Shown here: positions 1 to 14,494 of the stretch, one piece after another
Layout: every line of letters starts with the position of its first letter
Position numbering within the stretch: position 1 is the stretch's first letter
Assembly: GCA_022653695.1 (NCBI GenBank)
Contig: JALCSW010000003.1
Location: 1-64,000 of the forward strand
DNA: 64,000 bases
Source: Bacilli bacterium
GTDB taxonomy: Bacteria > Bacillota_I > Bacilli_A > RFN20 > CAG-826
Direction: 5' to 3'
Program-made: the position numbers and the translations under genes
The notes under the pieces: generated by a model
What the model was told of the DNA's origin: nothing
Databases searched by the model: none
What the model saw: only the letters and a program-made list of their open reading frames with translations

Positions 1-1
1 C

Positions 2-118
2 TGCCTGGGCTATCTGACCCCGAAACAGTACAGGGATGCCCACTTACCCGAAGCGGATGGTTCCAAAACGGCAAAGACGTGTCTCCGTTTGCCGGCGATC
101 GTGTCTACTTATCGTTGA
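2..118 (+). pseudogene. Possible C-terminal fragment of an IS3-like transposase
   Basis: Frame 2 is open from the window edge to a TGA at 116-118 and begins CLGYLTPKQYR. This resembles the LGYLTPxxYR tail found near the C-terminus of IS3-family transposases. If so, an insertion sequence once abutted or interrupted the restriction gene that follows in another frame. Only 38 codons are visible, the similarity is from memory, and the upstream part lies outside the window, so this is a weak call. Confidence 0.25.
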
Positions 119-728
119 CTACTGCACTTCGTCTGGAATTCTTCAAAAAGTTGGTGTATTTTCTAAAGGTTTTGTTTCATTTGACACCCTTGTTTCAACA
201 TATTCGCCATTCGCTAATGGCATAGTTGGAAATTACAAGAATGATTTTAAAGACACAGAATTTCCTGGATCAATAAAGATTTATCGTTACGAAAGAGGTA
301 CTTCTAAACGATACGCATACATTGATCGGAAAAAAATCATTGCCAATCAAGATTGGATTGATAGACATAAGGTATTTGTTTCAAAAGCAGGGGAAGTTTC
401 AGCAAAGTTTAACGGTCTTCCGTTCTATGGCGAGCCAGGGTCGGCTTGCAATGAAACATATCTCGTAGTTGGCCCATTTGAATCAAAAATAGAATGCGAT
501 AACGCCATCAAATATATGAACACCAGCATTTACAAGTTCTTCATTGCTCAGATTAAAAAGACTCAAAATGCAGCCAGAGGAGTTTACCGCTACGTTCCAA
601 TTCAAGACTTTTCGAAAACATCTGATATTGATTGGAGCCAAAGTTTGGATGTTATAAGCAAATCTTTATATAAGAAATATGGTATATCTGATGACGAGGT
701 AGTTTTTATTGAATCGATAGTTCAATAG
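36..728 (+). pseudogene. Truncated Eco57I/type II restriction-modification enzyme, C-terminal part
   Basis: The translated product matches, from about residue 40 onward, the C-terminal specificity region of Eco57I-type restriction-methyltransferases. FPGSIKIYRYERG, GEPGSACNETYLVVGPFES, YRYVPIQDFS and the ending KKYGISDDEVVFIESIVQ are typical of that family. The methyltransferase and endonuclease domains that normally precede it are absent. A stop codon lies in frame at 15-17 and the first 35 residues look unrelated. The fragment is therefore probably a 5'-truncated remnant, perhaps cut by an insertion at about 100-140. Without the rest of the gene it should have no restriction or methylation activity. 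An alternative is that the window edge plus a frameshift hides an intact gene. Confidence 0.7.
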
Positions 729-817
729 TTCCAAAACAAAAATAAATATTTGAATTCGTAAATATGTAATAAAAACCATAATTTATTGCACCCTATATAT
801 GCTATTATTATTTTAGT

Positions 818-1435
818 ATGGAAATGGATGAGAAACGAATAACTACAGATGATCGGCGGACATTCAAGTACGTCTATCCGTGGCACCACGGCTACATCGA
901 AGTGGAACTTGGCCCCGACGATTTCGAGCTCCGAAAGATAAACCCCCATCAAAGACAGATGGTCATCCTATATTACATAAAGCTACATGACGGCGAGAAG
1001 ATTATGTTCGATGAGGAATTCGCAATCAAACTAGGGACCAAGCAAAGGATCATCCAGTACGATCTGGCTTTCATGGAAAAGAAGGGGTGGGTAAGGATCG
1101 AGCCCACATTTGACAAGAAAGGCCGCAATTCCTACAACCGCTACTGGAACATGGTGAGAAAAGAGGCCTTCGACCATTTCTACGGAATGAAGCCAACCAT
1201 CGCCCGCGTCTACAGCGTGAAGAACTTCCTCGGCCTCAGGAACTGGCATTGGGAAGACTACAAAGTCATCACGGGATACGACGACTCTTACCACACCAAA
1301 TGGGACAAGATAGAGAACTACGACGAACTGAGGTCAAAGAGAAAAGACATTAAACAGACGCTCCACGCCTACGACCTGAGGAAGATTTCGCCATACCTCA
1401 AGAAGCGGCAAAGGCAAAAGCCATCCTCAAAATAG
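818..1435 (+). CDS. Winged-helix-like protein of the mobilizable element
   Basis: This 205-residue protein has no family I can name. Residues of about 40-100 contain a run of predicted helices followed by a KKGWVRIEP strand, which looks like a winged helix-turn-helix (QRQMVILYYIKLHDGEKI, then a recognition segment around GTKQRIIQYDLAFMEKKG). The C-terminus is very basic (KKRQRQK). The position upstream of the relaxase module suggests a replication, copy-control or regulatory role for the element. No clear Shine-Dalgarno precedes ATG 818, and ATG 824 is an alternative start. Confidence 0.5.
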   Translation: MEMDEKRITTDDRRTFKYVYPWHHGYIEVELGPDDFELRKINPHQRQMVILYYIKLHDGEKIMFDEEFAIKLGTKQRIIQYDLAFMEKKGWVRIEPTFDKKGRNSYNRYWNMVRKEAFDHFYGMKPTIARVYSVKNFLGLRNWHWEDYKVITGYDDSYHTKWDKIENYDELRSKRKDIKQTLHAYDLRKISPYLKKRQRQKPSSK

Positions 1436-1588
1436 CCATTATTCACCTTCCGTAAATATTTGCATAAGAAGTTTTTTCGGCTGAAAAAGCGACAGAAAGT
1501 CATTTTCGGCCCATTTTTTATTTGTGAAAATAAAAATTTTTCTTTCGCCGTGATCGGATGTTAAATCGGTAAGTCGGGGAATCGTACT

Positions 1589-1613
1589 AGGGGTAAGGGT
1601 GCAATTCCGTATA
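1589..1613. other. Candidate origin-of-transfer region
   Basis: The non-coding stretch 1440-1660 just upstream of the relaxosome genes contains a GGGGTAAGGGTGCAATTCC tract. Read on the minus strand it gives GCACCCTTACCCC, reminiscent of the CCCTTAC nic-adjacent motif in several MOBP/MOBQ origins of transfer. Position relative to the relaxase is the main support. No inverted repeat was firmly identified. Confidence 0.2.
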
Positions 1614-1724
1614 GATAAAATTGGAGAGGCATATTTTAGGCTTTTCAAAGGAGGTGGGGGAAAAATGGGCGGTCTCTCCGGCATAGGTGGGAAGCGCGAG
1701 AGCTTCCAAAAAGGAGGAAGGAAG

Positions 1725-2237
1725 ATGTTTGGATCAAAGAAGAAAGGTACGAGAGACAGGAGCACCCAGCCCCCGATGAAGGATCTTTATCGGAATGGGC
1801 TCAGCAAGCCGGTGGCAGACAAGCTGAGGGTCGTCTATTGGGAGGGCCACGACAAAGGAGAGTGGAAGAACGTCACCCAGATGGTCGACGCCATGGTGGG
1901 GGAGTTCCTCTCGCTCCATGGCCAGGGAGACGCCGCCACGATGGATGCGATGCTGACGATGGTTGCGAAGATGAGCAAGGAGAGCGAAAACGCTTTGCCT
2001 GAGCTTTTGGGCATCGACGGAAAGGCCGACTCCATCAAGGAGGACACCCAGAGGATGATGAGGATACTCTTCTTCGTGGCCAATGGCATCCAAAGGATGC
2101 TGACTGGCGATGACCACGAGAAGGCCAGGGCCGGGTTGCTTGATTATGAGACCAAGCACGCCGATGTCGCCATAGGGACGGTCGATCCGTCCTACTACAA
2201 GGAAAAGGCTGGAGGTGACGGACATGCCATCCCCTAA
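1725..2237 (+). CDS. Putative relaxosome accessory protein upstream of relaxase
   Basis: The ATG at 1725 follows an AAGGAGGAAGG site, so I prefer it to the in-frame ATG at 1665, which also has AAAGGAGGTGG upstream. The product is about 170 residues, starts with a basic stretch (MFGSKKKGTRDR) and is otherwise mostly helical, with no motif I recognise. It overlaps the relaxase start by 14 bp, so the two are probably translationally coupled. Small DNA-binding or helper proteins typically occupy this position in mobilization operons. That role is inferred from context only. Confidence 0.5.
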   Translation: MFGSKKKGTRDRSTQPPMKDLYRNGLSKPVADKLRVVYWEGHDKGEWKNVTQMVDAMVGEFLSLHGQGDAATMDAMLTMVAKMSKESENALPELLGIDGKADSIKEDTQRMMRILFFVANGIQRMLTGDDHEKARAGLLDYETKHADVAIGTVDPSYYKEKAGGDGHAIP

Positions 2238-3456
2238 TATCATCGTGAGGCACGAGTACTTCAAGCCGGGCGACCCGCAAAGAGACTACTACTCATCAAA
2301 CGGCGGTGCCGGGAAGCATGACTTTTTGTCCTATATGGACATCGGCTCAAAAGAGGATGGGAAGTACCTTGATTTCGTCGATTATGAGGGGAACCCCGAG
2401 AAGTCGTCGGGTGTTTTCGGGCCGAATGGTCTCATGGGCCAGGAGGAGGAGGCCAAGGCTAGGGACACGTTAAGAAAAAGCGGCGCCATCGTCCATTCTC
2501 TCGTCATCTCCACCGAGCACAAATTCGGGCTGGATAACCTGAAGGACAGCGGAAAGGCGGAGAGGCTGTTGGCCAAGACGTTCCCGAAGTTTTTGAAGGC
2601 CACCGGCTTCGACGTGGACAACGTCTTCTGGGTGGCGGCCCTCCATGAGAACACGGACAACCGCCACATCCACGTGCTTTTCCTCGAAAGGGAGCCGATA
2701 TACGCCAAGAAGGGTAAGGACGGCTATTTCTACAAATGGAAGGGAAAGCTCGACCCCCTGGCTATGAAGGAATGGAAGGGCGAGATGGAGAAGGAGCTAT
2801 TGCCTAAGCCCATGGGGATATGGGACACCCGCGACAAAGCGGTGGCCGAAGCCAAAAGGGCGGTCCTCGGGGCCAACGACTACATGAATCTGCAAGCGAC
2901 CCTCTCAAAGATATACGATGCCATGCCCGAAGACGGCCGCGTGGGCTATGAGTCGGAGAACATGAAGGGGGTAAGGCCGCTTGTCGACTCCGCCACCGAC
3001 ATCATACTGACCAACAGCTATTTATGGCCATCCATAAAGGAGGCCAGCGCGGCGTGCAAATCCTATGACGACGAGGTCAGGGAAAGATACCAATCATATG
3101 GCGCCTACGCCCCCAGGGAAGAGCTCATATACAGGCTCTACTCGGAGGAGATGTACCGAAGATGCGGTAACGCCATCATCAAGGAACTCATCGACCTCAA
3201 AGGACAGGAAAGGGCCATAAGGAGAAAGTACAAGAACTCCTACGCCGCCAAACATAGCGGCATAGCGACGGTGCTGAATGCCTTCGCCGACTCGGCCAGG
3301 TGGAGCGAGAAATGCGAGGCCGAGGCGAGCCTCACCGTCATCTGGTACAAGATGAAGACCAAGGAATTCGAGATCAAGAAGATGGCGGAATCCGGAGCGA
3401 TATCCCAAGAGGAAGCCTCTGAGGCGGTCGCCAAGATCGAGACGGAGCTGGAATGA
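2224..3456 (+). CDS. MobL/MOBP-type conjugative relaxase
   Basis: The product (about 410 residues) nicks DNA at an origin of transfer and pilots the strand during mobilization. The histidine triad is visible around residues 141-150 as HENTDNRHIHV, matching the HxDTxxxHxHI metal-binding motif of MobL-type relaxases. A preceding HSLVIS strand is also family-like. GGAGGTGA at 2211-2218 sets the ATG at 2224, rather than the GTG at 2215 that falls inside this site. The C-terminal half is helical and charged and has no helicase or primase motif. It sits between an accessory gene and a serine recombinase, as in integrative mobilizable elements of Bacillota. Confidence 0.8.
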   Translation: MPSPNIIVRHEYFKPGDPQRDYYSSNGGAGKHDFLSYMDIGSKEDGKYLDFVDYEGNPEKSSGVFGPNGLMGQEEEAKARDTLRKSGAIVHSLVISTEHKFGLDNLKDSGKAERLLAKTFPKFLKATGFDVDNVFWVAALHENTDNRHIHVLFLEREPIYAKKGKDGYFYKWKGKLDPLAMKEWKGEMEKELLPKPMGIWDTRDKAVAEAKRAVLGANDYMNLQATLSKIYDAMPEDGRVGYESENMKGVRPLVDSATDIILTNSYLWPSIKEASAACKSYDDEVRERYQSYGAYAPREELIYRLYSEEMYRRCGNAIIKELIDLKGQERAIRRKYKNSYAAKHSGIATVLNAFADSARWSEKCEAEASLTVIWYKMKTKEFEIKKMAESGAISQEEASEAVAKIETELE

Positions 3457-3571
3457 GAAAAACCCCAACAAATGCAAAGAGCATAAACGGTTTACTAATA
3501 AACCTTGGTAAACGAAGCGCAACCGGTATGCCCGGTTCGCCAAAAATAAGGAAAGAAAAGGAGGAAGGACT

Positions 3572-3949
3572 ATGACGGAATCATTAGAATACGGAAGGAG
3601 GGGCATTCTCGATATCGAGGTGCCCAAGTCGAGCATGGCGCAGGTAAAGCAGTTCGCCAGGGACATGGAGAAGCCGGTCTTCGACAGCCTGGCGGACCCG
3701 GATTTCCTATGGGAGGTCAACGCCATCATAATGGCGGAGGACGCGACGGAAGCGGCTGAGGAGCATGAGAGGAAATTCCCTCTCAGCCTTTCGGCCTCCC
3801 TGGTGTCTTACCTATACCAGCTGACGAGAAGATACTTGTCGGAAAGCGACGCGGTGCTAAGCGAGGAGCAGGTAATGGCCTCGCTTCTCGCCATCGTGAC
3901 AATCGGGGTCGAATCCAAAAGCGGATCGCTTTCGGGGGCGGCGGCATGA
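3572..3949 (+). CDS. Small acidic protein preceding the serine recombinase
   Basis: A 125-residue protein starting after an AAAGGAGGAAGG site. It is acidic and helical, with no recognised domain. Its stop codon overlaps the recombinase start by four bases (ATGA), so the two are likely co-translated. A role in regulating excision, such as a directionality factor, would suit the location but is only a guess. Confidence 0.55.
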   Translation: MTESLEYGRRGILDIEVPKSSMAQVKQFARDMEKPVFDSLADPDFLWEVNAIIMAEDATEAAEEHERKFPLSLSASLVSYLYQLTRRYLSESDAVLSEEQVMASLLAIVTIGVESKSGSLSGAAA

Positions 3950-5532
3950 GGGTTAGGAAAAAGAAGGTATTCTACGACGACAACAGGCCAGTCAAGAAAT
4001 GCGTGCTCTATCTCCGCTACTCAAGCGAGGGCCAGCGCGAGGAATCCATCGAGGGGCAAAGGCGGGAGAACACCAACTTCTGCAAAAGAAGCGGAATAGA
4101 GATAGTCGGCGAGTACATCGACCGCGCCAAGTCGGCGACCACCGATAACCGCCCCGAGTTCCAGCGGATGGTGAGGGAATCGGAATCGGGGCTCTTCGAC
4201 GCTGTGGTGGTGTGGAGGTTCGACCGCTTCTCCAGAAGCCGGAAGGATTCGGTCGTATATAAGGAGATACTACGCGACAACGGGGTGAGGGTCGTCTCCG
4301 CCACCGAGAAGTCGCTCGATGGTCCTGACTCCATCATCTTCGACGGCTTGGTGGACTCGCTCTCGGAATGGTATTCGGCCGACCTCTCCCAGAAGGTCAA
4401 AAGGGGGCTGACGGAGAACGTCCTCGAAGGGAAATCCATAGGGGCGACGCCGCCTTTGGGCTACACGATAGTTGACCATTACTACAAGATCGACGAGCAC
4501 GAGGCCCCGATAGTGAAGGAGGCTTTCAGACTCTACGTCGACGAGAACAAGTCGCTCCTTTCGATAGCCAAGGGCTTCCAGAAGGCCGGGGTGAAAAGAA
4601 CCTCCGGAAACGAGATAACCCACGTAATGCTGGAGCAGGCCGTCGGGAACGACCGCTACATCGGGATGCTTAGATGCACCGGCGCCGAGAACCCCAACGG
4701 ATTCCCGAGGATCATCGACGGCGAGACGTTCAAAAAGGCCCAAGCCAAAAGGGAGAGGAGGAAACACAGTGGCGGAGCCTTCAAGGCGGACGTTGAATAC
4801 GCCCTCTCGAAGAAGGTCTTTTGCGGTGGGTGTGGGAAGCCGTGGATTGGCCAAAGTGGGACCTCGAAAGTCGGAAGGCTCTATTCCTACTACAAATGCA
4901 ACGGTGTCCTTCACCATGAGGGCTGCACGATGAAGCCGATACCCAAGGATGTTCTAGAGAAAGCTGTTTGCGAGACGGTCCTAAGGGTGGTGGGGAACTC
5001 GACCATCGCCGATGTGGTGAGCGAGAACCTCTACAAGACCCAGGGAACCGATAGTCCGGAGCTGACCGCTGCCAAAGAAAGGCTGGCAGATGTGGAGAAG
5101 CAGAGAAATAACTTTGCCATCGCCATAGGCCAAGGCATCATCACCGGAACCACCAAGGAGAACCTACTAAGGCTCGAAGGGGAGAAGGAGAGGCTGGAGA
5201 ACTCCATCGCGAATGAGAAGACGGCTGAGAAGAACTACACCAAGCGCCAGATCGTGACGGCGATGAGGTTAATCGCCGGCTCGGAGCTTGACAAGGACAT
5301 CAGCCGGAAAGTGGTGGCCGAGAAGTTCGTTGAGAAAGTCATCGTCAGGACCAACAACACGGTGACCATAAACGCGAATATTTTCGGGGCCAAGATCAGC
5401 AAGGACATCCCAATACCTAAAGGCTCCCTTAAAAGTGTTCGCATAGCGCAAGCCATGTCCTGCCAAAATCGAAATATGGCCGTTTCGCACCCACGAAGCG
5501 GTTTTTATTTTGTCAAAAAACAGCTTTTTTAA
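3946..5532 (+). CDS. Large serine recombinase (site-specific integrase)
   Basis: This 528-residue protein has the three-part layout of large serine recombinases. The resolvase-type catalytic domain (about 18-165) carries the nucleophile in YLRYSSEGQ (Ser26) and the arginine-rich segment VVVWRFDRFSRS. The recombinase domain follows (about 175-280, PLGYTIVDHYYKIDEHEAPIV). A zinc ribbon comes next (about 292-326, CGGCGKP...CNGVLHHEGC), then a coiled coil (about 365-420). It should integrate and excise the surrounding element at an attachment site I could not identify. The extreme C-terminus beyond about 495 is Ser/Arg-rich and may be a frame extension. Codon use matches the other genes of the element. 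Confidence 0.9.
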   Translation: MRVRKKKVFYDDNRPVKKCVLYLRYSSEGQREESIEGQRRENTNFCKRSGIEIVGEYIDRAKSATTDNRPEFQRMVRESESGLFDAVVVWRFDRFSRSRKDSVVYKEILRDNGVRVVSATEKSLDGPDSIIFDGLVDSLSEWYSADLSQKVKRGLTENVLEGKSIGATPPLGYTIVDHYYKIDEHEAPIVKEAFRLYVDENKSLLSIAKGFQKAGVKRTSGNEITHVMLEQAVGNDRYIGMLRCTGAENPNGFPRIIDGETFKKAQAKRERRKHSGGAFKADVEYALSKKVFCGGCGKPWIGQSGTSKVGRLYSYYKCNGVLHHEGCTMKPIPKDVLEKAVCETVLRVVGNSTIADVVSENLYKTQGTDSPELTAAKERLADVEKQRNNFAIAIGQGIITGTTKENLLRLEGEKERLENSIANEKTAEKNYTKRQIVTAMRLIAGSELDKDISRKVVAEKFVEKVIVRTNNTVTINANIFGAKISKDIPIPKGSLKSVRIAQAMSCQNRNMAVSHPRSGFYFVKKQLF

Positions 5533-5600
5533 TAAAAAAACAAGCAAAAACGCTAAAAAGTGTGTATCAAAAAAAGGGTTTTCCCTTTCATAAATTTCTT

Positions 5601-5680
5601 GACCTTTTCAGATCAATGGTGACGAGTTCGAGTCAGAGTGGACGAATTAACGTCAAAGGTGACGAATTAGAAGTTGATAA
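5601..5680. repeat. Four imperfect 20-bp direct repeats
   Basis: GAC starts recur at 5601, 5621, 5641 and 5661, exactly 20 bp apart. The shared pattern is GACnnnTTnnnnTCA, with GACGAnTT in the last three copies. Two DNA turns per unit suggests repeated binding sites for one protein, as in the multi-site ends of IS21-type elements or iterons. No transposase gene lies beside it, so this may be an element end left behind. Confidence 0.5.
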
Positions 5681-5899
5681 TCCATCATTTCTATGAAATG
5701 TATGTCATGGGGTGGTTGTGTGAGATGCTTTGTTTTTCGAGATGGATTCGATGGATTTAAAGATTGGATTCAATCAATCGACAAGATTTACATGGTTGTT
5801 CGTTCCTATGACAATACGACATCAGAACAATACAGGGAATCGATAAAGGAAAGAGCGAAAGAAGTCAGAAGGAGAAAAGAGAAACAACAAAAGGCTTTC

Positions 5900-7498
5900 T
5901 CAGTCGTTGCATTTTCTCATTTCCAAGGTACCATCGAATTGCTTTGGCAATGACGGAAGCACATTGTGGCAAACGAAGACGATTGTCATGGGTAGTCCCA
6001 ATATGCTTTCTTGGATGCTGCGATTCGTCATTTCATCTAAGCCAGATGTGATCTCGTCTAGAAGCAAAATCTTTGGTTCATGGTATATAGCCCTTGCGAG
6101 CGCTATTCTTTGAGTCTCGCCGCCACTGCTGGAGTTTAACTCGGGGTCAAGAAGCGTATCCGTCCCTCTTTCCTTAACGAAATCGACCAATCCAGCCAAA
6201 CGAATTGCCTTAGTGAATTTGCCGTCGTCATACGGGGAACCAAAAAGAACGTTCTCCTTCAGAGTGCCTGGGAAAATTCTTGAAGTTTGCTCACAGTAAT
6301 AAACCGCGGATGCCACCGTTTTGAAACTGAGATCGCGGTAATCGTGTCCGCTCGCTTCAATAGTTCCGACATAAGGCTCACCACTATCAGAAAGAAGGCG
6401 GAGCAAGGTACTCTTTCCGCTACCGCTTTCTCCTTCTATGAGGTATTTTTTACCCGGTTCGAATGAATAAGAAAAATGGGAAATGATTTCTTTTTCCCCG
6501 TAGGAAAAGCTGAGATCTTGAACAGAAAGGCGACCATCCAGTTCGATTTTATCCTTCTTAGAGAACTCTTGCGTTGTTAATGTGAGAAGGCTTGCGTTTA
6601 CCGATGACATCCCCTTTATTGAAGATACAGAAGTGGCGAAACTGCTCAATGGATTATAGAGGTTGTTCGCGAGTTGGATGAAAGCAAGAACGGCACCGAA
6701 AGCCAGTCCTCCCTGGGAGGCGATAATTCCTGACCCCACAATGACCGAGATTTGAAGAACCGTTGTCAACAAACTGCTTAAGGATGACACGCCCAAGGAA
6801 AGGCGGGATTGCCTAAAGGCCGCGCGATAGGCTTTCATCGACGAGCGGCTTTCCTTTTCAAAAACATAATCGTATGCGGAAAGGCTCCTCACGACGTCGT
6901 GGCCCTGAAGGAAATTCTGGTATTGGCTTGAAAGATTGGAAAAGGCTTTCTGGATTTCCTCGTTACGAAGATTCATTGGCTTGTTAAAAAAATACGGGAC
7001 AAGAAACACCAAGAAAGAAAAGGCCAACAAGAAAAGTGCGATGGCCCAATTAATGTAAAGGGACATGGCAAGCGCAGCCAAATAAGTCAGTATAAAACCA
7101 GGGAGGGAAAGCATTGGGCCTAGATATTGATTGGCGACACGGGTGCAATCGTTCATGAGAACGGACAGATAAGAGGAAACATTGTTTTCCTGAAATGAGG
7201 CCGTGTTTTTCTCCATCAAGGAGGAAAAAACATCGTCGCTAAGCCGTTTGACTGCCTTGTTGAGGTACCAAGCCACGTAAGAGTTATATCCAAAAAAACA
7301 CGTGATCATTATCACCGCATAGCCAAGCGCCGCCGCCCCATAACCTATGAAGGTGGTTATGTCAAAAGAGTCGGAGGAAATGTTGTTAACTAGGTATTCA
7401 ATGACCAAAGCAATCCCCGCTTCGAGAACGGCGTCAAGAAAAGCGAGAAAAAGGAGAAGGAAATAGAATCCCTTAGACCAATAAAGATACTTTTTCAT
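5900..7498 (-). CDS. ABC exporter (fused membrane and ATPase domains), likely peptide exporter
   Basis: The product (532 residues from the ATG at 7498, with AGAGGA upstream) has an N-terminal domain with about six membrane segments (residues about 10-290). A nucleotide-binding domain follows, with Walker A GESGSGKSTLL, signature SSSGGETQRIALARA and Walker B ILLLDEITSGLDE. It has no peptidase C39 domain, so any leader would have to be removed elsewhere. It overlaps the end of the radical SAM gene by 26 bp, and a short peptide gene lies just upstream. Export of the modified peptide is the simplest role. General lipid or drug export is the alternative. Base composition is clearly more AT-rich than in the core genes. 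Confidence 0.85.
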   Translation of the reverse strand: MKKYLYWSKGFYFLLLFLAFLDAVLEAGIALVIEYLVNNISSDSFDITTFIGYGAAALGYAVIMITCFFGYNSYVAWYLNKAVKRLSDDVFSSLMEKNTASFQENNVSSYLSVLMNDCTRVANQYLGPMLSLPGFILTYLAALAMSLYINWAIALFLLAFSFLVFLVPYFFNKPMNLRNEEIQKAFSNLSSQYQNFLQGHDVVRSLSAYDYVFEKESRSSMKAYRAAFRQSRLSLGVSSLSSLLTTVLQISVIVGSGIIASQGGLAFGAVLAFIQLANNLYNPLSSFATSVSSIKGMSSVNASLLTLTTQEFSKKDKIELDGRLSVQDLSFSYGEKEIISHFSYSFEPGKKYLIEGESGSGKSTLLRLLSDSGEPYVGTIEASGHDYRDLSFKTVASAVYYCEQTSRIFPGTLKENVLFGSPYDDGKFTKAIRLAGLVDFVKERGTDTLLDPELNSSSGGETQRIALARAIYHEPKILLLDEITSGLDEMTNRSIQESILGLPMTIVFVCHNVLPSLPKQFDGTLEMRKCND

Positions 7499-8705
7499 GA
7501 AGCAGTTCCTCTGCATAGCATTGGTAAAAACCTATAACGCCTTGTCGCATTGCCTCACAGATCTTTTCGCCCCTCTCAGCGTTCCTGCATTGTTGGCCAA
7601 AGCATTTCGGATATAGCAAACAATCGTCATCGGGGCAATTTTTTCTGGCTTCTGGATCTTCGGATAGGCAATCTTCGATTTTTCCCTCCCCCATCATCTT
7701 TATCGTGCAATCGCCTATGCTGCCATCGGGATAAACGACGAATTTGCCTGGATGCCCAAATTGGCAAAAGAAACCTTCCGTATTAACGGAATCCATCAAG
7801 GCTGAATGCAAGCCCTTTCGTAATACTGGCTCATTTAACGAAAAAATGTTTAAACTTTTTGCCATGCATGATTTTCCGAGATTTTTCCAATCACTAACTG
7901 GGTAAAAAAGGAGCGAAAACCGTTTATCGTTTCCAAAGTTGTCATTGAAAACATCGCAAAACGGATCTATTACGGCCTGATCGCTGACGTTGCATCTTAC
8001 GATCATGGTAAACGGTTCTGGGATCTTATGTAATGTTAGAAGGTTTCTCATGATTATGTCGAATGTGCCACCACCATCGGGCCGGAGCCGACTAATGTCA
8101 TTCATTTCCTTTGGCCCGTCAACGGTCACTTGGAACGAAGTCACGCCGCAATCGACAAGGCTACGCGAGGTAGGTCCGTCCAATAAGGTGCCATTCGTGG
8201 TAATGCCTGATTTGAAGATGTGCGAACAGGAATTTTGATACTCCTTCATTTCCGAAGAGAAAGAAAGGACCCTCTCCTTATTCAACAACGGTTCTCCCCC
8301 GAACCAAGAAATAAAAAGGATTTGCGGAGACAGCTCTTTGATTTTTCTCTCAAGCCTGATGTACGTATCATCCCCCGTTGTCGGCCCATCGTGACGTTCG
8401 TAGCAATACGGACACCTTAAATTGCAACGCAAACTAGTGAATATGCAAACGTCTAATAAATCCTTTCCATGGAACAAGGCGCGTTCCTTGTCCAAAAGGA
8501 AGGCGTTCTCGAAAGTGTGGTCTCTCAGGAAATGGTGAGAGCGCAAAAACCCTTCTATTTCTTCGTCTTTTGATCCATTTATGGCATTGGCCAACCTGAG
8601 AGAATGCTCTTGGTCAAATCTAACGACGGAGTTTGTCATCGTATTGATTAAAAGACATCCGTTTTTGGTGGATTTGAATATTAAAGAATATTTGGCAAAC
8701 TCCAT
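7473..8705 (-). CDS. Radical SAM/SPASM peptide-modifying enzyme
   Basis: A 410-residue protein with an N-terminal region of about 85 residues (a candidate peptide-recognition segment). The radical SAM core follows, with CX3CX2C at residues 94-101 (CNLRCPYC), WFGGEPLL and ITTNGTLL. A C-terminal SPASM-like region has many cysteines (CTIKMMGE, NCPDDDCLLYPKCFGQQC, KIC) for auxiliary Fe-S clusters. Enzymes of this shape install thioether or C-C crosslinks in short peptides. The gene starts only six bases after the 34-codon Cys-containing peptide ORF and precedes an ABC exporter. I infer that it modifies that peptide. An anaerobic sulfatase-maturase role is less likely because no sulfatase is nearby. 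Confidence 0.88.
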   Translation of the reverse strand: MEFAKYSLIFKSTKNGCLLINTMTNSVVRFDQEHSLRLANAINGSKDEEIEGFLRSHHFLRDHTFENAFLLDKERALFHGKDLLDVCIFTSLRCNLRCPYCYERHDGPTTGDDTYIRLERKIKELSPQILFISWFGGEPLLNKERVLSFSSEMKEYQNSCSHIFKSGITTNGTLLDGPTSRSLVDCGVTSFQVTVDGPKEMNDISRLRPDGGGTFDIIMRNLLTLHKIPEPFTMIVRCNVSDQAVIDPFCDVFNDNFGNDKRFSLLFYPVSDWKNLGKSCMAKSLNIFSLNEPVLRKGLHSALMDSVNTEGFFCQFGHPGKFVVYPDGSIGDCTIKMMGEGKIEDCLSEDPEARKNCPDDDCLLYPKCFGQQCRNAERGEKICEAMRQGVIGFYQCYAEELLHEKVSLLV

Positions 8706-8711
8706 ACGTTA

Positions 8712-8816
8712 TCAGCTCCCGCACCCAAGGTAATTGAGCACGCACTTCTTCTGGCAAGCAATGATGTTAATGCTTTCGGTGAAGAGGCCGTCGTATCCTT
8801 CGACAACTATTTCCAC
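8712..8816 (-). CDS. Candidate RiPP precursor peptide (34 aa, CX3CX6C)
   Basis: Reading the minus strand, AAAGGAGGT at about 8824-8832 is followed eight bases later by GTG 8816, which opens a 34-codon frame ending TGA at 8712. The N-terminal part contains VEGYDGLF. The C-terminal part holds three cysteines (Cys21, Cys25, Cys32) in ACQKKC and YLGCGS. The same frame extends upstream to ATG 8840 (43 aa) and ATG 8876 (54 aa), but neither has a ribosome site. The EGY plus C-terminal Cys layout recalls Cys-rich peptides paired with SPASM enzymes, such as the Clo7bot type (from memory). The radical SAM gene begins six bases downstream. The peptide is too short for standard ORF thresholds. Confidence 0.65.
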   Translation of the reverse strand: MEIVVEGYDGLFTESINIIACQKKCVLNYLGCGS

Positions 8817-8896
8817 GGGTTTTACCTCCTTTGTCGGCATCATAAAACCAATACCAAAGATGAGGTCAAGCACCATTAACGATGGATTCTGAAGAA

Positions 8897-8918
8897 AACC
8901 TAAACCTAGGTTTAGGTT
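8897..8918. promoter_or_regulatory. Perfect 22-bp palindrome between regulator and peptide gene
   Basis: Two 11-base arms (AACCTAAACCT and its exact complement) meet with no spacer at 8907/8908. The palindrome covers the stop codon of the MerR-type gene and lies about 20-80 bp upstream of the possible peptide starts. A spacerless palindrome is a poor terminator hairpin and a good operator for a dimeric regulator, so I favour binding by the adjacent MerR protein. On the minus strand it is followed by TTTTC, so weak termination is not excluded. Confidence 0.5.
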
Positions 8919-9939
8919 ATTTGCTTTGCTTTAACTCGATTTCGTTGTCTTCTCTCACGATGGTTTCAAAGAGGACGGAATCATCTTTTGTTAGAGACGA
9001 GAAGAAAGGGGTCGGAAGATCCCCGTTTGAGATCCAAGAGGCGCCATCGAGGCAAGCTGCTTTCAGTGGAAGGCATCGAGAATCGGAAAAAATGAAGGCC
9101 ACTTGATGGCCACGAAAATCCGAACACACTTTTCTGATAGAAGGTAGATCCATCCCTCCTTGAACGAAAATCAAGCAATCCCGAGGTAACTGTTCAAAGG
9201 AGCTTAGTAAAAGGACAGAATTATCTATGTCGGAGATTAGAAAAACCTTTGGGGAGGTGGTGGAAAATTTCTCCAACGCTTCGGAAAAAGCACGTTGGTA
9301 AGCGATCAAGCGTTTTTCGACTTCGGCTTCTTTTTTCGATCCCCAATCACCGAAATCGGTGTTTATCGGACGATCTTTGGCTTGTATGAACTCTTTTGAA
9401 AAACAATTTGGATACAAGATACCATCAGAAATGTTCCAGGAATCACTACATTTTTCACAATGAAGTGAAGCGCTTCGAAGGCAGTCTTCTTCTATGGTCC
9501 CGTCCCTTAAAAGGAGTTTACTTCCACAGAAGGGGCATCGCAGAAAAGGAATGGCCTTTAAAGAAAAACCGCAATCCAAACGAGAAATATCATCGTCTTG
9601 CGAAGAAATAATGGCCTTCAGCTTTTTTTCCTTTAACCGAAGAGATTTTTGCTCATCGTGAATCTCATGAATTCGTCTTTTCAACATTCCTTTTTGTTCT
9701 TTAGCTAAAGCATTCTTGAATTTGCTTGTAAGTAACATCGAAAGAAGGAATTTTGAAATATCTTCTAAAGAAAATCCCAATTCCTTTAATTCGTTTATCG
9801 TCTTAGCCGTTTTTAGGTCCCGGTCGTCAAAAGAGTATTGCCCATTTCTTTTTGTTGGTCCCAAAAGTCCATGGTTTATGTAATAACGAATGGTGGATTC
9901 GCTAAGCTCTGTGAGTTTTGAGAATTCCCCGATCCTCAT
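8917..9939 (-). CDS. MerR-type regulator fused to zinc ribbon and methyltransferase-like domain
   Basis: The 340-residue product begins with a MerR winged helix (residues 1-70; IGEFSKLTELSESTIRYYINHGLL) and a long helix (about 75-115). A CX2C...CX2C zinc ribbon follows at Cys135, 138, 161 and 164 (CPFCGS, CEKC). This resembles the N-terminal zinc finger of the RlmA rRNA methyltransferases. Residues of about 200-330 look like a Rossmann-type methyltransferase domain, but no clear SAM-binding glycine motif is visible. Ordinary MerR proteins have a short effector domain, so the fused part may sense a metal, SAM or the peptide product (inference). It is upstream of, and co-oriented with, the peptide, radical SAM and exporter genes. 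Confidence 0.75.
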   Translation of the reverse strand: MRIGEFSKLTELSESTIRYYINHGLLGPTKRNGQYSFDDRDLKTAKTINELKELGFSLEDISKFLLSMLLTSKFKNALAKEQKGMLKRRIHEIHDEQKSLRLKEKKLKAIISSQDDDISRLDCGFSLKAIPFLRCPFCGSKLLLRDGTIEEDCLRSASLHCEKCSDSWNISDGILYPNCFSKEFIQAKDRPINTDFGDWGSKKEAEVEKRLIAYQRAFSEALEKFSTTSPKVFLISDIDNSVLLLSSFEQLPRDCLIFVQGGMDLPSIRKVCSDFRGHQVAFIFSDSRCLPLKAACLDGASWISNGDLPTPFFSSLTKDDSVLFETIVREDNEIELKQSK

Positions 9940-10218
9940 GCAACTATTATCCTGCTTCCGTTTGCCAACGGCATTAAAAATCCTTCTGGTGAAAACAGTT
10001 ACCCATCAGTTCATTGCTTTGCCGGCTATGACCGTTTACGATGTCTTGGCTTTTTCCTTCGTTTGTTTTCTCTGTCACCATTCGAAGCTTCTCGATGTTT
10101 ATCGTTTCCTCTGAAAGTTTTCTGATCGACTTCATTCTTTTTCGCTACCAATGTTTATTCGAAGTTTATTTTTCCATTTTGGCAATTATGATCTCATCGG
10201 GAAAACAAGCATTCTGTG

Positions 10219-10388
10219 CTATACAGACCGGAAGTCCAAACGATCCTAGAAGCGGTGCAAGTCAGGAGGCAAGACAAAAAAGCAGCAATGTTCACAATGG
10301 GCACTAGAGATGATGTGCAACCCTATATTTCCTAGCCCAAGAACTCACCAAGAACGGGGTGGACGTAACCCTTGGTTCCCATCCTTAA
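10219..10388 (+). pseudogene. Remnant of a family 28-type glycosyltransferase, N-terminal part
   Basis: A frame beginning LYRPEVQTILEAV runs into FTMGTRDDVQPYIS, then meets TAG at 10333. In the next frame the sequence continues LAQELTKNGVDVTLGSHP and stops at 10386. Joined, this matches the N-terminal MGTRGDVQPxIALAxxL segment of UDP-glucose:sterol-type glycosyltransferases. One missing base near 10331 explains the frame change. The rest of the gene is absent. The remaining spacer 9940-10215 holds nothing I recognise. Confidence 0.55.
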
Positions 10389-10450
10389 TATAAGCCTTCA
10401 TATGTAGTTTTCTGCTTGAAGTGTAACTTTTATTCCTGTCGATAATCATT

Positions 10451-11293
10451 ATGGCAAGAAGAAAAAGAAAAAACGAAGCAACCCCAGTCGAAACGGTGAT
10501 TCTTGCTGGGCCGATAATTCTACTTGTGTTAGCGATTGGGCAAAATTGGGGGACAGGCTGGATTATCTTCTTTTCGCTCCTCGTTGTCGCGGTAATGGCC
10601 CTTCTTATCATCAATCATCTGCCAGCCGTTAAGGGATGGAAAGGCGAAAGAAAAGTAAGAAGGTATATTTTGAAAGGGATGAACAAAAACGACGTTCTTA
10701 TCAACGATGTAATCGTTCCGGGGGATGACGGCAAAACCTCGCAAATCGATCACGTTTTGGTGTCTTCAAAAGGAATCTTCGTGGTGGAGACGAAAAACTA
10801 CTCCGGAAGGATCTACGGCAAAGATGGAGACATGAATTGGACCCAGGTGCTCGCTTATGGGCATAACAAGAACCGGTTGTATTCACCGGTGTTTCAAAAC
10901 ACGACTCACATAAGAAGGCTCAATTCTTTGTTCCCAAATGAGAAACTCAACATGAACAATGTGGTGGTGTTCGCCCAAGGCAACGTCAAATACATCGACA
11001 GCGAATATGTTTTCGCTCCTAGAGAACTCAAACGCTACCTAAAAGGCTGTCGGAACGATCTTCTCCAAGAAAGCGATATCCAAAGAATCGCTGGAGCGAT
11101 TAACACCTACAAGGAGAACCCGATCGAAACCAACAAAGAACACGCTGAAGGCATAAGGGAAACCAAAAACAAAATCAATGCCAACATTTGCCCTCGTTGT
11201 GGAAGCGCGCTTGTTCTCCGTCACACGAAAGATGGCCGCGAATTCTATGGTTGCTCAAACTACCCGAAGTGCAAGTTCATCAAGAAAAAGTGA
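10451..11293 (+). CDS. NERD domain protein with membrane anchor and C-terminal zinc finger
   Basis: The 280-residue protein has two hydrophobic segments (about 16-31 and 37-54). A nuclease-related NERD domain follows (about 62-190), with GWKGERKVRRYI, the QID motif at 98-100, VLVSSKGIFVVETKN and a final FAQG segment. A C-terminal topoisomerase-type C4 zinc finger starts at Cys247 (CPRCGS...CSNYPKC). NERD proteins are thought to act on nucleic acids, and the Q-I-D and E-T-K residues match the nuclease-like catalytic pattern. It stands alone between a decayed gene and yqeY and may be part of an acquired patch. The substrate is unknown. Confidence 0.85.
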   Translation: MARRKRKNEATPVETVILAGPIILLVLAIGQNWGTGWIIFFSLLVVAVMALLIINHLPAVKGWKGERKVRRYILKGMNKNDVLINDVIVPGDDGKTSQIDHVLVSSKGIFVVETKNYSGRIYGKDGDMNWTQVLAYGHNKNRLYSPVFQNTTHIRRLNSLFPNEKLNMNNVVVFAQGNVKYIDSEYVFAPRELKRYLKGCRNDLLQESDIQRIAGAINTYKENPIETNKEHAEGIRETKNKINANICPRCGSALVLRHTKDGREFYGCSNYPKCKFIKKK

Positions 11294-11440
11294 ATACTAA
11301 TCCGCGAAAAGACGAGGAATGATCAAATTTCAGTACGTAATAGTTCTTCGAAAAAAATCGAGAGTCTGAACAAAATGCCTTCGCACGTCGGGGGCTTTCC
11401 TTATGTTATGATGGTCTAGCCACGCGTATATAAGACCGAA

Positions 11441-11479
11441 AAAAGACAAATGAGACAGAAACTGTTCTCTTTGTCTTTT
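11441..11479 (+). promoter_or_regulatory. Long hairpin upstream of yqeY remnant
   Basis: AAAAGACAAA (11441-11450) pairs with the TTTGTCTTTT that ends at 11479, with a further inner stem (GAGACAG/CTGTTCTC). The hairpin lies about 35 bp before the yqeY start and ends in a U-rich run. It may be a terminator for the upstream NERD gene or a leader attenuator. Nothing else was recognised between 11294 and 11513. Confidence 0.4.
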
Positions 11480-11513
11480 CCGGTTTTCTTTTGTCTAGGG
11501 GGGGGAGAGAAAG

Positions 11514-11915
11514 ATGCTTAAGGCCAACATCACGGCCATGAAAGCGCATGACGAGGCCGCTCGCTCGAGCCTTAGCATCGTCATTTCCCGTTATCAGGAA
11601 CTGAAGACCAACGGAAGCGGCAAGGAGGTCACCGACCTTGATGTCCTCAAGATCGTCCAGAAGTTTTTCAAGGAGCTCGACGAGGAGCGGGACAGCTACG
11701 CCGCGGCCGGCAGGCCCGAGCAGGCTTCCGTCATCGCCCTTTAGAAAAAGGCCATCGAGGGATTCCTCCCCAAGATGCTTCCGGAAACGGAGATCAGGAA
11801 GATCTACTCCTGGCTTTCCGACAAAGCCCTTCCCTCCGTCATGAGATACTTCAAGGAACACTACGACGGGCAAGTCGACATGTCACTTGTCAGAAAGATA
11901 GCGAGAGGTCTATAA
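11514..11915 (+). pseudogene. yqeY: GatB/YqeY family protein interrupted by in-frame amber codon
   Basis: The frame from ATG 11514 encodes a YqeY-like helical protein (AMKAHDEAARSSLSIVISRY, VTDLDVLKIVQKF). It meets TAG at 11742-11744 after VIAL. The same frame then continues KKAIEGFLPKMLPETEI to GQVDMSLVRKIARGL and ends TAA at 11913. Both halves match the family in order: the LPKxL segment, then the C-terminal GxxDxxLVxxI. The interruption is therefore one nonsense codon at a position usually occupied by Gln, Glu or Lys. Read through, the product would be 133 residues, slightly short for the family (about 148). TAG is used as an ordinary stop elsewhere (rnfC, ldh), so a nonsense mutation or sequencing error is likelier than recoding. 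Confidence 0.75.
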
Positions 11916-11928
11916 TTACCACGCCTTT

Positions 11929-12002
11929 AGGGGCGTGGTTCAGTGGTAGAACAGAGGTCTCCAAAACCTTTGATGAGGGTTCGATTCCTTCCGCCCCTGC
12001 CA
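11929..12002 (+). tRNA. tRNA-Trp (CCA anticodon)
   Basis: A complete cloverleaf starts with acceptor AGGGGCG paired to CGCCCCT. The D arm is GTTCAGTGGTAGAAC and the anticodon loop is CTCCAAA with anticodon CCA. The T arm contains GGTTCGATTCC and the CCA end is encoded. It follows the yqeY remnant by 13 bases. Confidence 0.95.
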
Positions 12003-12099
12003 AAATGCCGTATATGCGAATTCTTGGAGTCTACCGGACAGAGTTCGTCGTTGCAATCGGGCTCAAGGGATTCCTTGAGTTCGAGCAAAACCAAGAAGT

Positions 12100-12127
12100 G
12101 ACCGTCTAGTGCGGTCTTTTCTTTTGC
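12100..12127 (+). terminator. Rho-independent terminator downstream of tRNA-Trp
   Basis: GACCG (12100-12104) and CGGTC (12112-12116) form a short stem followed by TTTTCTTTT. A second perfect hairpin (CTCAAGG/CCTTGAG, 12062-12079) lies just upstream. Confidence 0.6.
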
Positions 12128-12329
12128 TGCCCGTGGATTTGCTATATGGGTTTATAGGTAGGATCTCTATGGTGCGGCTGGGTCCATGAACGCGGCCGGT
12201 TTCTTTCGCGAGTCATTTTAACGCTTTGAAAGCCTTTGCCGCCTCGGCCACCAAATTGGCAACGACCGGGAAGATCGTTCCTTTTTTGACGGGGTCGCGG
12301 AAGACGTTCGTGAGGTTTTTTCGGCCATC

Positions 12330-12461
12330 ATGGTCGCGAGCGCTTATGGCTTGAGTTACGTCTTGAAGATAGTCGTCGGGGCGTTAGGGTGCCTGGCGAT
12401 CTTTTCTTTAACGCCAATGCTCATTTGCGGATTCCTAGACCATAAATTCTTCGAAGGCTAG
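12330..12461 (+). CDS. Possible small or degenerate membrane ORF in the 12.1-12.5 kb spacer
   Basis: A 43-codon frame encodes a hydrophobic peptide (YVLKIVVGALGCLAIFSLTP). The frame beside it upstream (about 12213-12325) encodes FNALKAFAASATKL-like helical sequence. The two could be halves of one membrane protein joined by a frameshift. No ribosome site is visible. Nothing else was recognised between 12128 and 12512. Confidence 0.2.
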   Translation: MVASAYGLSYVLKIVVGALGCLAIFSLTPMLICGFLDHKFFEG

Positions 12462-12512
12462 AAAAAAGCACGACACTTTCGACTTGATGAGGGCATATAC
12501 TAACCAATAGCG

Positions 12513-13052
12513 ATGAAAGCTAAAACCCCTTTGCACGAAAAAATAATTGACTCTGAAAGAATCAGTTCAATCACGGATAAGAAATCCAAGAAGAGGATTG
12601 ATAGGTACAATTCATTAATACTTTTAATCACCGGATGCCTTCCAATCGCCCCCACCTTCTATGGCTATAACTATGTCACTTTGGATGGGATCATCATTGA
12701 GGTTTTCTTCGATATCTTGGTTCTTGCGTATTTGTATTGTTTCGTACGGATGGCCATTTTGGTCCACAAGTACCGTTTCTTCAGGAAAACAATCTATTTC
12801 CACCTTCTTTATTTGCCATTCTTTCTGATGGCTTTGGTGATGTGCTTGCTGCCTTTGTTTACCGGAAAATTGATCGTCACTAACCATAGCGTCACTTTTT
12901 CCAACAATGTCGCCTATTTCTTTGTGGTTTTCCTTCCAATATTCTTTGCTTACATTGTTTTTATGGCATTTGCGGTGTTCAAGGGGTTGGCGCGAGGGCT
13001 CAAGCCAATGGAGGACAAAATGCAGGAAGGCCAAGACCATCCGCTTAAGTGA
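12513..13052 (+). CDS. Four-pass membrane protein, unknown function
   Basis: This 179-residue protein has a charged N-terminal segment of about 33 residues. Four hydrophobic helices follow at about 34-52, 57-80, 97-117 and 131-155, and the tail is basic and acidic. I see no family motif. Both flanking spacers are long and gene-poor, and the gene is AT-richer than the ABC operon that follows. It may be an isolated acquired gene. There is no clear Shine-Dalgarno site. Confidence 0.55.
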   Translation: MKAKTPLHEKIIDSERISSITDKKSKKRIDRYNSLILLITGCLPIAPTFYGYNYVTLDGIIIEVFFDILVLAYLYCFVRMAILVHKYRFFRKTIYFHLLYLPFFLMALVMCLLPLFTGKLIVTNHSVTFSNNVAYFFVVFLPIFFAYIVFMAFAVFKGLARGLKPMEDKMQEGQDHPLK

Positions 13053-13633
13053 GCGATGGCGAAGGGTTTCGCAATTGGCGGAAAGCCATAGGCCAAGGCA
13101 GGCATCAATCAAATCTTGGCTAGAAGATCCATCATCGGATGCCTCCTAGGGAAAGCGGAAACTTAGAAAGGCAGGCACGCATCAATGTAGCTGGCATCTT
13201 CGGCTTCAAGACATCCCAAAAAGTCACGTTCAATGATCTTCGGCTAGGCCCGAATGGATAATGGCCCCCCTTGCCAAATTGCCAAATTGTCTATTGGCGG
13301 TATTTCTGCTTTCATAAGCCATCAAGACCAAAACCGATTTTTCTTGTTTCGATGCGAATGCGCCATCGATCCCGGCTTTTATAGTTTCGCTTGCGTAGCG
13401 GCTTTTCGCCGCTATGAAATTGCTTTGTCCTTTTTTCGTGCGATGTTTATACTTAGCGAGTATGAAAAAACGAATGGACGTAACCTCGGAAGTTCGCCGT
13501 TTCGCCTAAACGATCAATGCGGGAGATGGCTGAACCATCATTGCTCCCGGGGGTCGCCGCAAAGGCCTTGCGGTCTTAGTCAAGAAAGAGCCGAGAGATT
13601 CGCGTCGCATCTTTATAAAGGAGTTAGGGAAGA
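13053..13633. other. Gene-poor spacer with a hairpin before the ABC operon
   Basis: No convincing coding frame is visible. A perfect stem CCGCAA/TTGCGG (13557-13573, loop AGGCC) lies about 60 bp before the ABC gene and could act in its leader. A GntR-type regulator often precedes such ABC pairs, but I could not find one here. Confidence 0.4.
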
Positions 13634-14494
13634 ATGAGAATCCTTACGCTGAATAGCGTTCGTAAGACTTACCCAAGTTTCGTTCTTGACGGCGTTTCCT
13701 TTTCCCTCGAAGCCGGGCACATCGTCGGTTTCATCGGGAGGAACGGGGCTGGGAAAACCACGACGCTCAAATGCATTTACAACCTTGTGAGCCCCGATTC
13801 CGGATCCATCGAGTATCTGGGGAAAGAGATTCGCGACACGGAAGCCTTCGCCAAGAGCGAGATTGGGCTTTTGTTTGGCGGCATCGAGTATTATCCCAAC
13901 AAGACTTTGCGGAGGATGACCTCGATAACCTCTTCTTTCTACCCCAAGTGGAATCGGTCGCTTTATGAGTCGTTCGTGAAGGATTTCGGCCTTGACGAGA
14001 ACAAAAAAATAAAGGAACTCTCGAGCGGCATGAAAGTGAAATATGGCTTGGCGCTGGCTCTTTCGCACGGGGCCAAGGCTTTGCTTCTTGACGAGCCGAC
14101 GAGCGGGCTCGATCCGGTTTCGCGCGACGAGCTGATGGATATTTTCATGAAAATCGTCTCCGATGGCGAGCATACGATCCTTTTCTCGACCCACGTCATC
14201 AGCGATCTTGAGAAAAGCGCCGACGACATTGTCTACATCAAGGAAGGGAAGATCATCGTTGACGAGCCCCTTTCCTCGTTTGAAAAGAAATACGTTATGC
14301 TCACGGGTGACGAGGAACTGATCAGAGGGCACGATATGTCAAAACTTGGCTACGTTCGCGTCCATGGCGGCAAATTCGAGTTCGTCGTGCCGGCGGGGGA
14401 AAGCGCGGCGATTCCAGGGGCCGCGTCCCGTCAGGCGAGCCTAGAGGAGATCATGGTCTTCCTCGAAAGAGGGGAGGAAAAGAAAAATGCGTAA
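13634..14494 (+). CDS. ABC transporter ATP-binding protein (EcsA/YtrB-like)
   Basis: A 286-residue ATPase with Walker A GRNGAGKTTT (about 37-46), signature LSSGMKVKYGLALAL, Walker B LLLDEPTSGLD and H-loop STHVISD. The roughly 75-residue C-terminal extension is typical of ATPases serving ABC-2-type exporters. AAAGGAG sits about ten bases before ATG 13634. The stop overlaps the start of the permease gene by eight bases, so the two form a coupled operon. The substrate is unknown. Related pairs export peptides, antibiotics or heme-like compounds. Confidence 0.88.
   Translation: MRILTLNSVRKTYPSFVLDGVSFSLEAGHIVGFIGRNGAGKTTTLKCIYNLVSPDSGSIEYLGKEIRDTEAFAKSEIGLLFGGIEYYPNKTLRRMTSITSSFYPKWNRSLYESFVKDFGLDENKKIKELSSGMKVKYGLALALSHGAKALLLDEPTSGLDPVSRDELMDIFMKIVSDGEHTILFSTHVISDLEKSADDIVYIKEGKIIVDEPLSSFEKKYVMLTGDEELIRGHDMSKLGYVRVHGGKFEFVVPAGESAAIPGAASRQASLEEIMVFLERGEEKKNA

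What the first reader, a model, noticed from the sequence alone, without database searches (positions are those of the whole stretch)
5900..9939. Complete candidate RiPP cluster: MerR fusion, 34-aa Cys peptide, radical SAM/SPASM enzyme, ABC exporter
A short ORF with an exact AAGGAGGT site lies six bases before a radical SAM/SPASM gene, which overlaps an ABC exporter. The peptide has a leader-like acidic N-terminus (VEGYDGLF) and three C-terminal cysteines (CX3CX6C). All genes share strand and AT-rich composition. Seen: ORF, ribosome site, motifs, order. Known: SPASM enzymes modify Cys-containing precursors. Inferred: the peptide is the substrate and the exporter its outlet. The peptide is similar only in outline to Clo7bot-type sequences, so it may be a new subtype.
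Basis: partly seen in the sequence, partly recalled or inferred. Interest (0 to 1): 0.88.

Follow-up and report, generated by a model that had tools for sequence, protein, structure and literature searches.

The report
MerR-controlled radical SAM peptide cluster
A Bacilli bacterium appears to carry a small gene set that makes a 34-residue cysteine peptide, modifies it with a radical SAM enzyme and exports it under a MerR-type switch, while a second copy in the same genome has lost the peptide-making part but kept the switch and the exporter.

Summary
On the minus strand lie a MerR/zinc-ribbon fusion, a 34-aa Cys peptide, a radical SAM/SPASM enzyme starting 6 nt later, and an ABC exporter overlapping it by 26 nt. 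The enzyme's one firmly grouped relative (G148, 35% identity) has its own RBS-led 34-aa Cys peptide just upstream and an overlapping ABC gene; a looser cousin (G367, about 31%) has a 28-aa one. Across the loci scanned, 5 of 18 radical SAM genes but 0 of 95 other large ORFs have such an ORF upstream.

New points: (1) the 34-aa form is favoured over the 54-aa form, because a MerR-type promoter (TTGACC-19 bp-TATGAT) lies inside the 54-aa frame. (2) A paralogous locus keeps MerR fusion, promoter and exporter, but peptide and all but about 50 codons of the enzyme are gone; the kept genes look constrained. (3) The cluster lies in an 8.5-kb low-GC block identical in a second species.

Best reading: a radical SAM RiPP whose regulator and exporter form a separable sensing/self-protection module. 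The enzyme meets no curated subfamily cut-off; Clo7bot membership is not met. Chemistry, activity and the MerR ligand are untested.

The parts
8917..9939 (-). MerR fusion: MerR HTH (1-65), helix, zinc-ribbon-like Cys pairs (C135/C138, C161/C164), C-terminal domain of unknown family
   Evidence: MerR_1 5.4e-18; weak Trm112 match, 25.9 bits, cut-off 77; the Cys are invariant in the paralogues
8897..8918 (.). 22-nt perfect palindrome at the MerR stop; core TAAACCWAGGTTTA also at the same place in the paralogous locus; role open
8839..8869 (-). Candidate MerR-type promoter TTGACC-N19-TATGAT
   Evidence: (2 strict matches in 64 kb, shuffle mean 0.1), coordinates
8824..8832 (-). Ribosome-binding site AAAGGAGGT
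8712..8816 (-). Candidate 34-aa precursor peptide, GTG start, three C-terminal Cys
   Evidence: counterparts in G148 and G367
7473..8705 (-). Radical SAM/SPASM enzyme, 410 aa
   Evidence: Pfam Radical_SAM 1.5e-16; NCBIfam; ten Cys invariant in 3 aligned sequences
5900..7498 (-). Half-size ABC exporter without peptidase domain, 532 aa from ATG 7498
   Evidence: ABC_membrane and ABC_tran; start by comparison with paralogue
5462..13953 (.). Block without a mismatch to G015, 44.8% GC

Best explanation
The four genes form a radical SAM RiPP system. SHOWN by sequence: the gene order; a 34-aa Cys ORF with RBS; the 6-nt and overlapping gene junctions; recurrence of peptide/rSAM/ABC in one firm relative and one looser cousin; a promoter with the 19-bp spacer typical of MerR control; and a paralogous locus that lost peptide and enzyme but kept MerR, promoter and exporter. 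INFERRED: the MerR fusion holds the promoter silent and, on binding a ligand with its C-terminal part, distorts the DNA to switch the operon on. The N-terminal part of the peptide is the leader held by the enzyme, which links the C-terminal cysteines by thioether chemistry. The exporter, which lacks a peptidase domain, moves the product out, and a protease elsewhere trims the leader. Since the second locus keeps only regulator and exporter, I think the ligand is the mature peptide or a near relative, and that MerR plus exporter also give inducible self-protection. The stated confidence is for the RiPP core under MerR control; I put the product-sensing, self-protection part at about 0.35.
For: G148 has MEILQVQYTDESLLNIKCVQNIICGVDAKYCHLE, G367 has MEVISNGNPTSVGVVVPVNILCGSNCGK, each behind GGAGGTGAA and before the enzyme gene. 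Window and G148 enzymes group at 100/99. Shuffles: 13 of 20,000 (window, at least 3 Cys), 2 of 5,000 (G148, at least 3 Cys) and 15 of 5,000 (G367, at least 2 Cys). Control: 5 of 18 radical SAM genes against 0 of 95 other large ORFs have such an ORF upstream. rSAM-ABC overlaps of 26 nt (window), 26 nt (G148, if the ABC start is the ATG at L069 8496) and 8 nt (G367). The 13 best NCBIfam matches of the enzyme are all RiPP maturase models. Promoter: 2 strict TTGACN-N19-TATNNT in 64 kb against a mean of 0.1 in 20 shuffles, one of them right before the peptide. The paralogue has TTGACG-19-TATCCT with dyad CGTGAAC-TTTT-GTTAACG in both species, a site found once in each genome at up to 3 mismatches. 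Paralogue G000/G015: MerR dN 0.027, dS 0.095; exporter, first 466 codons, dN 0.021, dS 0.148.
Against: One firm relative and one cousin are few, and the peptides align weakly (1.2-2.0% of shuffles as good). 13 of the 18 radical SAM genes scanned lack a strict upstream Cys ORF. No MerR gene was seen beside the G148 or G367 enzymes in the stretches read, so MerR control is known only from the window's genus. The dyad in the window's own promoter is poor (3 of 7 arm positions, by eye). The paralogous exporter of G015 has a frameshift near its end. Both structure models are poor (pLDDT 53 and 51), so a leader-binding domain is not shown. No protease or separate immunity gene was recognised in 5900-9939.
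Confidence: 0.72

Rival explanations
1. The modified peptide is a signal rather than a toxin: the exporter secretes it, and the MerR fusion is its intracellular receptor in an autoinducing loop. The MerR/exporter pair of the second copy would be a leftover receiver or signal pump.
For: Regulator, peptide and exporter are linked, with the regulator's promoter site driving the peptide. The second copy keeps regulator and exporter.
Against: No importer for a signal was looked for or recognised beside the cluster; an exporter alone does not explain re-entry. No activity data.
Confidence: 0.14
2. The 34-aa ORF is a chance or regulatory upstream ORF, and the enzyme acts on a substrate encoded elsewhere.
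For: Weak likeness between the three peptides; no model matches the peptide; 13 of 18 radical SAM genes scanned have no such ORF.
Against: Chance is 13 of 20,000 by shuffling; the nearest relative has a 34-aa Cys ORF in the same place; 0 of 95 other large ORFs have one upstream.
Confidence: 0.08
3. The system deals with metals or thiol stress: a MerR metal sensor controls a small metal-binding Cys peptide and its exporter.
For: The fusion's best NCBIfam matches are Zn- and Cu-responsive regulators (48.2, 46.6 and 45.7 bits), and it has two Cys pairs.
Against: Those scores are far below the cut-offs of 143, 167.95 and 147.4. The Cys at 123, 135, 138, 161 and 164 do not form the CX7C loop of CueR (loop recalled, no call). 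A radical SAM enzyme is not needed for a metal-binding peptide.
Confidence: 0.06

Closest known systems
CefB, TIGR04463 and Clo7bot radical SAM/SPASM maturases (NF038107, TIGR04463, TIGR04334)
   Same: Radical SAM/SPASM enzyme of like length; matches begin near the N-terminus
   Different: 112.1, 97.9 and 88.8 bits against cut-offs of 600, 525 and 600; the peptide matches no model, though no positive control worked
Streptosactin (GGG) family
   Same: A radical SAM-modified short peptide; the exporter here matches the GggC model over 3-528 of 538 residues
   Different: Exporter at 140.2 bits, cut-off 750. Streptosactin is streptococcal, under Rgg/SHP control, with two sactionine rings (PMC13361665, passages); here the regulator is a MerR fusion. 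Gene order of that operon is recalled.
Solved enzymes 5wgg/5why, 9gm3/9gmc (ChlB), 8vpo (TigE)
   Same: Best matches by profile and by fold search; 5wgg is CteB (name recalled)
   Different: The profile match to 5wgg covers only 82-247; fold TM-scores are 0.40-0.47 on a low-confidence model
TipA and BmrR type MerR drug sensors
   Same: MerR HTH plus a larger C-terminal part; promoter with a long spacer
   Different: PDB profile matches to TipA (2vz4, E 0.078) and BmrR (E 0.016-0.017) cover only positions 2-107; the C-terminal part has no known family

Membership tests
Radical SAM/SPASM peptide maturase | CX3CX2C motif and seven further SPASM cysteines | tested here: met
   C94, C98, C101 and C314, C333, C357, C362, C368, C373, C383 are invariant in the 3 aligned sequences; Pfam Radical_SAM above cut-off, but Pfam listed no SPASM domain. 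The seven-Cys rule is recalled.
Clo7bot maturase (TIGR04334) | Score above 600 bits | tested here: not met
   88.8 bits
Clo7bot or other curated precursor | Peptide matches a curated precursor model | tested here: inconclusive
   No match for the 34- and 54-aa forms in NCBIfam or Pfam; 0 of 8 other candidate precursors matched NCBIfam, so there is no positive control
RiPP cluster | Linked precursor, maturase and exporter, recurring in an independent genome | tested here: met
   Window and G148; G367 as a looser cousin
RiPP cluster | Leader-binding (RRE) domain | tested here: inconclusive
   Three strands then three helices at the N-terminus of the model, but block means of pLDDT are 38-52 there
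Sactipeptide or ranthipeptide | Thioether from Cys sulfur to the alpha carbon, or to another carbon | not testable with these tools
   Needs mass spectrometry or NMR
MerR family | MerR HTH domain and promoter with 19-20 bp spacer | tested here: met
   MerR_1 5.4e-18; 19-bp spacer here and in the paralogue; spacer rule from PMC9909328, passages. Binding was not tested.
TipA-like sensor | Known antibiotic-binding domain behind the HTH | tested here: not met
   No Pfam, NCBIfam or PDB match to the C-terminal part beyond weak zinc-ribbon matches

The most novel reading that the evidence does not exclude
The MerR/zinc-ribbon fusion directly senses a radical SAM-modified peptide, and MerR plus exporter form a stand-alone inducible immunity (or receiver) module that outlived the loss of the biosynthetic genes, the old peptide promoter now driving the exporter directly.
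Probability: 0.35. Interest if true: 0.68.

Novelty: new variant of a known kind. Interest (0 to 1): 0.5.

Why it matters
If true, a one-component MerR switch with a new C-terminal domain controls a radical SAM peptide, so its ligand can be tested on one short promoter. The two loci in one genome, one complete and one stripped to regulator plus exporter, make a natural test of whether an exporter protects against its own peptide. The enzyme group is rare in what was searched: window, its identical copy in G015, and G148 are the only firm members met.

Tried and rejected
The 54-aa form was rejected: its frame runs through the promoter, and the peptides of G148 and G367 start at the ME[IV] codon after the RBS. 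Clo7bot filing was rejected on score.

Precursor families by HMM gave no match, and no positive control worked. The 34-aa peptide by tblastn in plasmids and phages gave no match. In the own genome the 54-aa form matched itself and one weak place (E 0.09).

Enzyme relatives on plasmids: 92 records, 3 with at least 80% of the query, the 20 listed all under 40% identity; neighbourhoods not read. Viral contigs: 53 loci; best profile E 1.8e-63, against 2e-187 or better for the three rows of the profile itself. The Theionarchaea locus L033 was not followed.

I first treated window, G148 and G367 as one subfamily. The tree supports only window plus G148 (100/99); G367 is at 76/66, with G487 and G819 (L095) about as near, and the report was mended for this. 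The other class-level relatives have small Cys ORFs upstream (G287, G573), downstream (G487, G431, G509, G292; loose RBS rule, the one of G431 overlapping the enzyme gene) or none listed (G317); their peptides were not compared.

Structure models were poor; only the enzyme model was searched against the PDB.

Papers: the search for MerR, RiPP, radical SAM and ABC transporter gave 6 papers; in the one opened, the four 'merr' matches shown are the author name Merritt. The 15 listed of 256 hold 'MerR family' zero times. So a MerR regulator of a radical SAM RiPP was not met; this is no proof of absence.
Full report
WHAT IS THERE. All features of the finding are in the sequence, on the minus strand. 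In order of transcription: a MerR fusion (8917-9939); a 34-codon ORF (GTG 8816 to stop 8712) behind AAAGGAGGT; a radical SAM/SPASM gene (7473-8705) starting 6 nt after the peptide stop; and an ABC exporter (5900-7498) whose most likely start lies 26 nt inside the enzyme gene. The cluster is 43.8% GC; the window right of 13953 is 54.2%.

IS THE PEPTIDE REAL. In shuffles of the 211-nt gap between MerR and the enzyme, a GGAGG-led ORF of at least 20 aa with three Cys occurs in 13 of 20,000 (the rule was set after seeing the peptide). Recurrence is the stronger test. The enzyme was searched in 116, 279 and 395 genomes (relatives, order, class sample) and as a three-row profile in 392, 244 and 249 (phylum sample, order and family of G367); the sets overlap. 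Apart from the identical copy in G015, the nearest relatives are G148 (35% over residues 5-400, E 2e-70) and G367 (31% over 10-337, E 1e-34). A tree of 21 enzymes groups window and G148 firmly (100/99), G367 only weakly (76/66); G487 and G819 are about as near as G367.

G148 has MEILQVQYTDESLLNIKCVQNIICGVDAKYCHLE (34 aa) and G367 MEVISNGNPTSVGVVVPVNILCGSNCGK (28 aa), each behind GGAGGTGAA and just before the enzyme gene. By shuffling, such ORFs occur in 2 of 5,000 (at least 3 Cys) and 15 of 5,000 (at least 2 Cys). Both have an ABC gene overlapping the enzyme's 3' end (26 and 8 nt). As a control over 18 loci, 5 of 18 radical SAM genes have a strict upstream Cys ORF against 0 of 95 other ORFs of 300 aa or more; downstream it is 1 of 18 against 3 of 95, two of those three being the window and G148 peptides themselves. 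Against: the peptides align weakly (z 2.6, 2.4, 2.5), and 13 of 18 radical SAM genes show no such upstream ORF.

THE SWITCH. Between MerR and the peptide lies TTGACC-19 bp-TATGAT (8839-8869). The strict form TTGACN-N19-TATNNT occurs twice in 64 kb on both strands, against a mean of 0.1 in 20 shuffles, and spacers of 15-18, 20 and 21 gave none; the other match, at 1337, is antisense to an ORF and probably chance. Spacers of 19-20 bp are typical of MerR-controlled promoters (PMC9909328, passages). The fusion has a MerR HTH (5.4e-18), a zinc-ribbon-like part with weak Trm112 matches and a C-terminal part with no family found. In 274 genomes of the order, 2 have matches at E 1e-15 or better, two copies each. 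A 22-nt perfect palindrome sits at the MerR stop; its core TAAACCWAGGTTTA is also at the MerR stop of the second copy.

THE SECOND COPY. In the same genome (G000:C1, about 549.3-552.1 kb) and in G015 (C6) lies a paralogous locus: MerR fusion (38% identity), the promoter, the last 50 or so codons of an enzyme gene (54-56% identity), and an exporter (53-54% identity). The peptide and the rest of the enzyme gene are missing; the junction lies just after the old RBS and is the same in both species, so the loss probably came before they split. Between the two, MerR has dN 0.027 and dS 0.095, the exporter (first 466 codons) dN 0.021 and dS 0.148. The promoter TTGACG-19-TATCCT holds the dyad CGTGAAC-TTTT-GTTAACG, found once in each genome at up to 3 mismatches. 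Against strict constraint, the exporter gene of G015 has a 1-nt insertion near its end.

SHARED BLOCK. The window matches G015 without mismatch from 5462 to 13953; to the right, 500-nt bins to 21.5 kb run from 77% to 95%. To the left, the window has a MobL relaxase and a serine recombinase, not aligned to G015 here. Recent exchange is the simplest reading; an artefact in two draft genomes is not excluded.

HOW IT MOST LIKELY WORKS. MerR keeps the promoter silent and activates it on ligand binding; the operon makes peptide, enzyme and exporter; the enzyme, guided by the leader, links the Cys residues; the exporter, without a peptidase domain, moves the product out; a protease elsewhere removes the leader. 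Gene content and promoter rest on sequence; ligand, chemistry, export and activity are inferred. The stripped copy suggests that regulator plus exporter are useful alone, as inducible self-protection or as a receiver.

KNOWN OR NEW. The enzyme is a radical SAM/SPASM peptide maturase by its cysteines and nearest models, with 5wgg, ChlB and TigE as nearest solved structures. Its best NCBIfam score is 112.1 bits against a cut-off of 600 (64 families matched, 25 shown). It is not a Clo7bot enzyme. I file it as a new variant of a known kind. Papers were seen as listings with abstract openings or as passages; none was read whole.

CHANGE AFTER CHECKING. G367 was lowered from subfamily member to cousin; the new control speaks the other way, so the confidence of 0.72 was left as it was.

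Noticed in passing
window 1-5461: Part of a mobilisable element: MobL relaxase (2215-3456) and serine recombinase (ORF 3946-5532), not aligned to G015; identity with G015 starts at 5462, inside the recombinase ORF, as at an insertion junction.
   Followed up: partly
window 5462-13953: 8.5-kb block without mismatch to another species of the genus, 44.8% GC against 54.2% to its right.
   Followed up: partly
window 9940-9954 and L036 just upstream of 8290: Both MerR fusion genes have a GATAAT or CATAAT box only 6-7 nt before the start codon, as if their mRNAs were nearly leaderless (by eye).
   Followed up: no
L115, L011, L122, L097, L100: More distant radical SAM genes with small Cys ORFs beside them, several in L115, some sharing starts such as MK[TV]IKEA; no curated model matched the ones tested.
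   Followed up: no
window 10451-11293: NERD-domain protein with a topoisomerase-type zinc finger inside the shared block.
   Followed up: no
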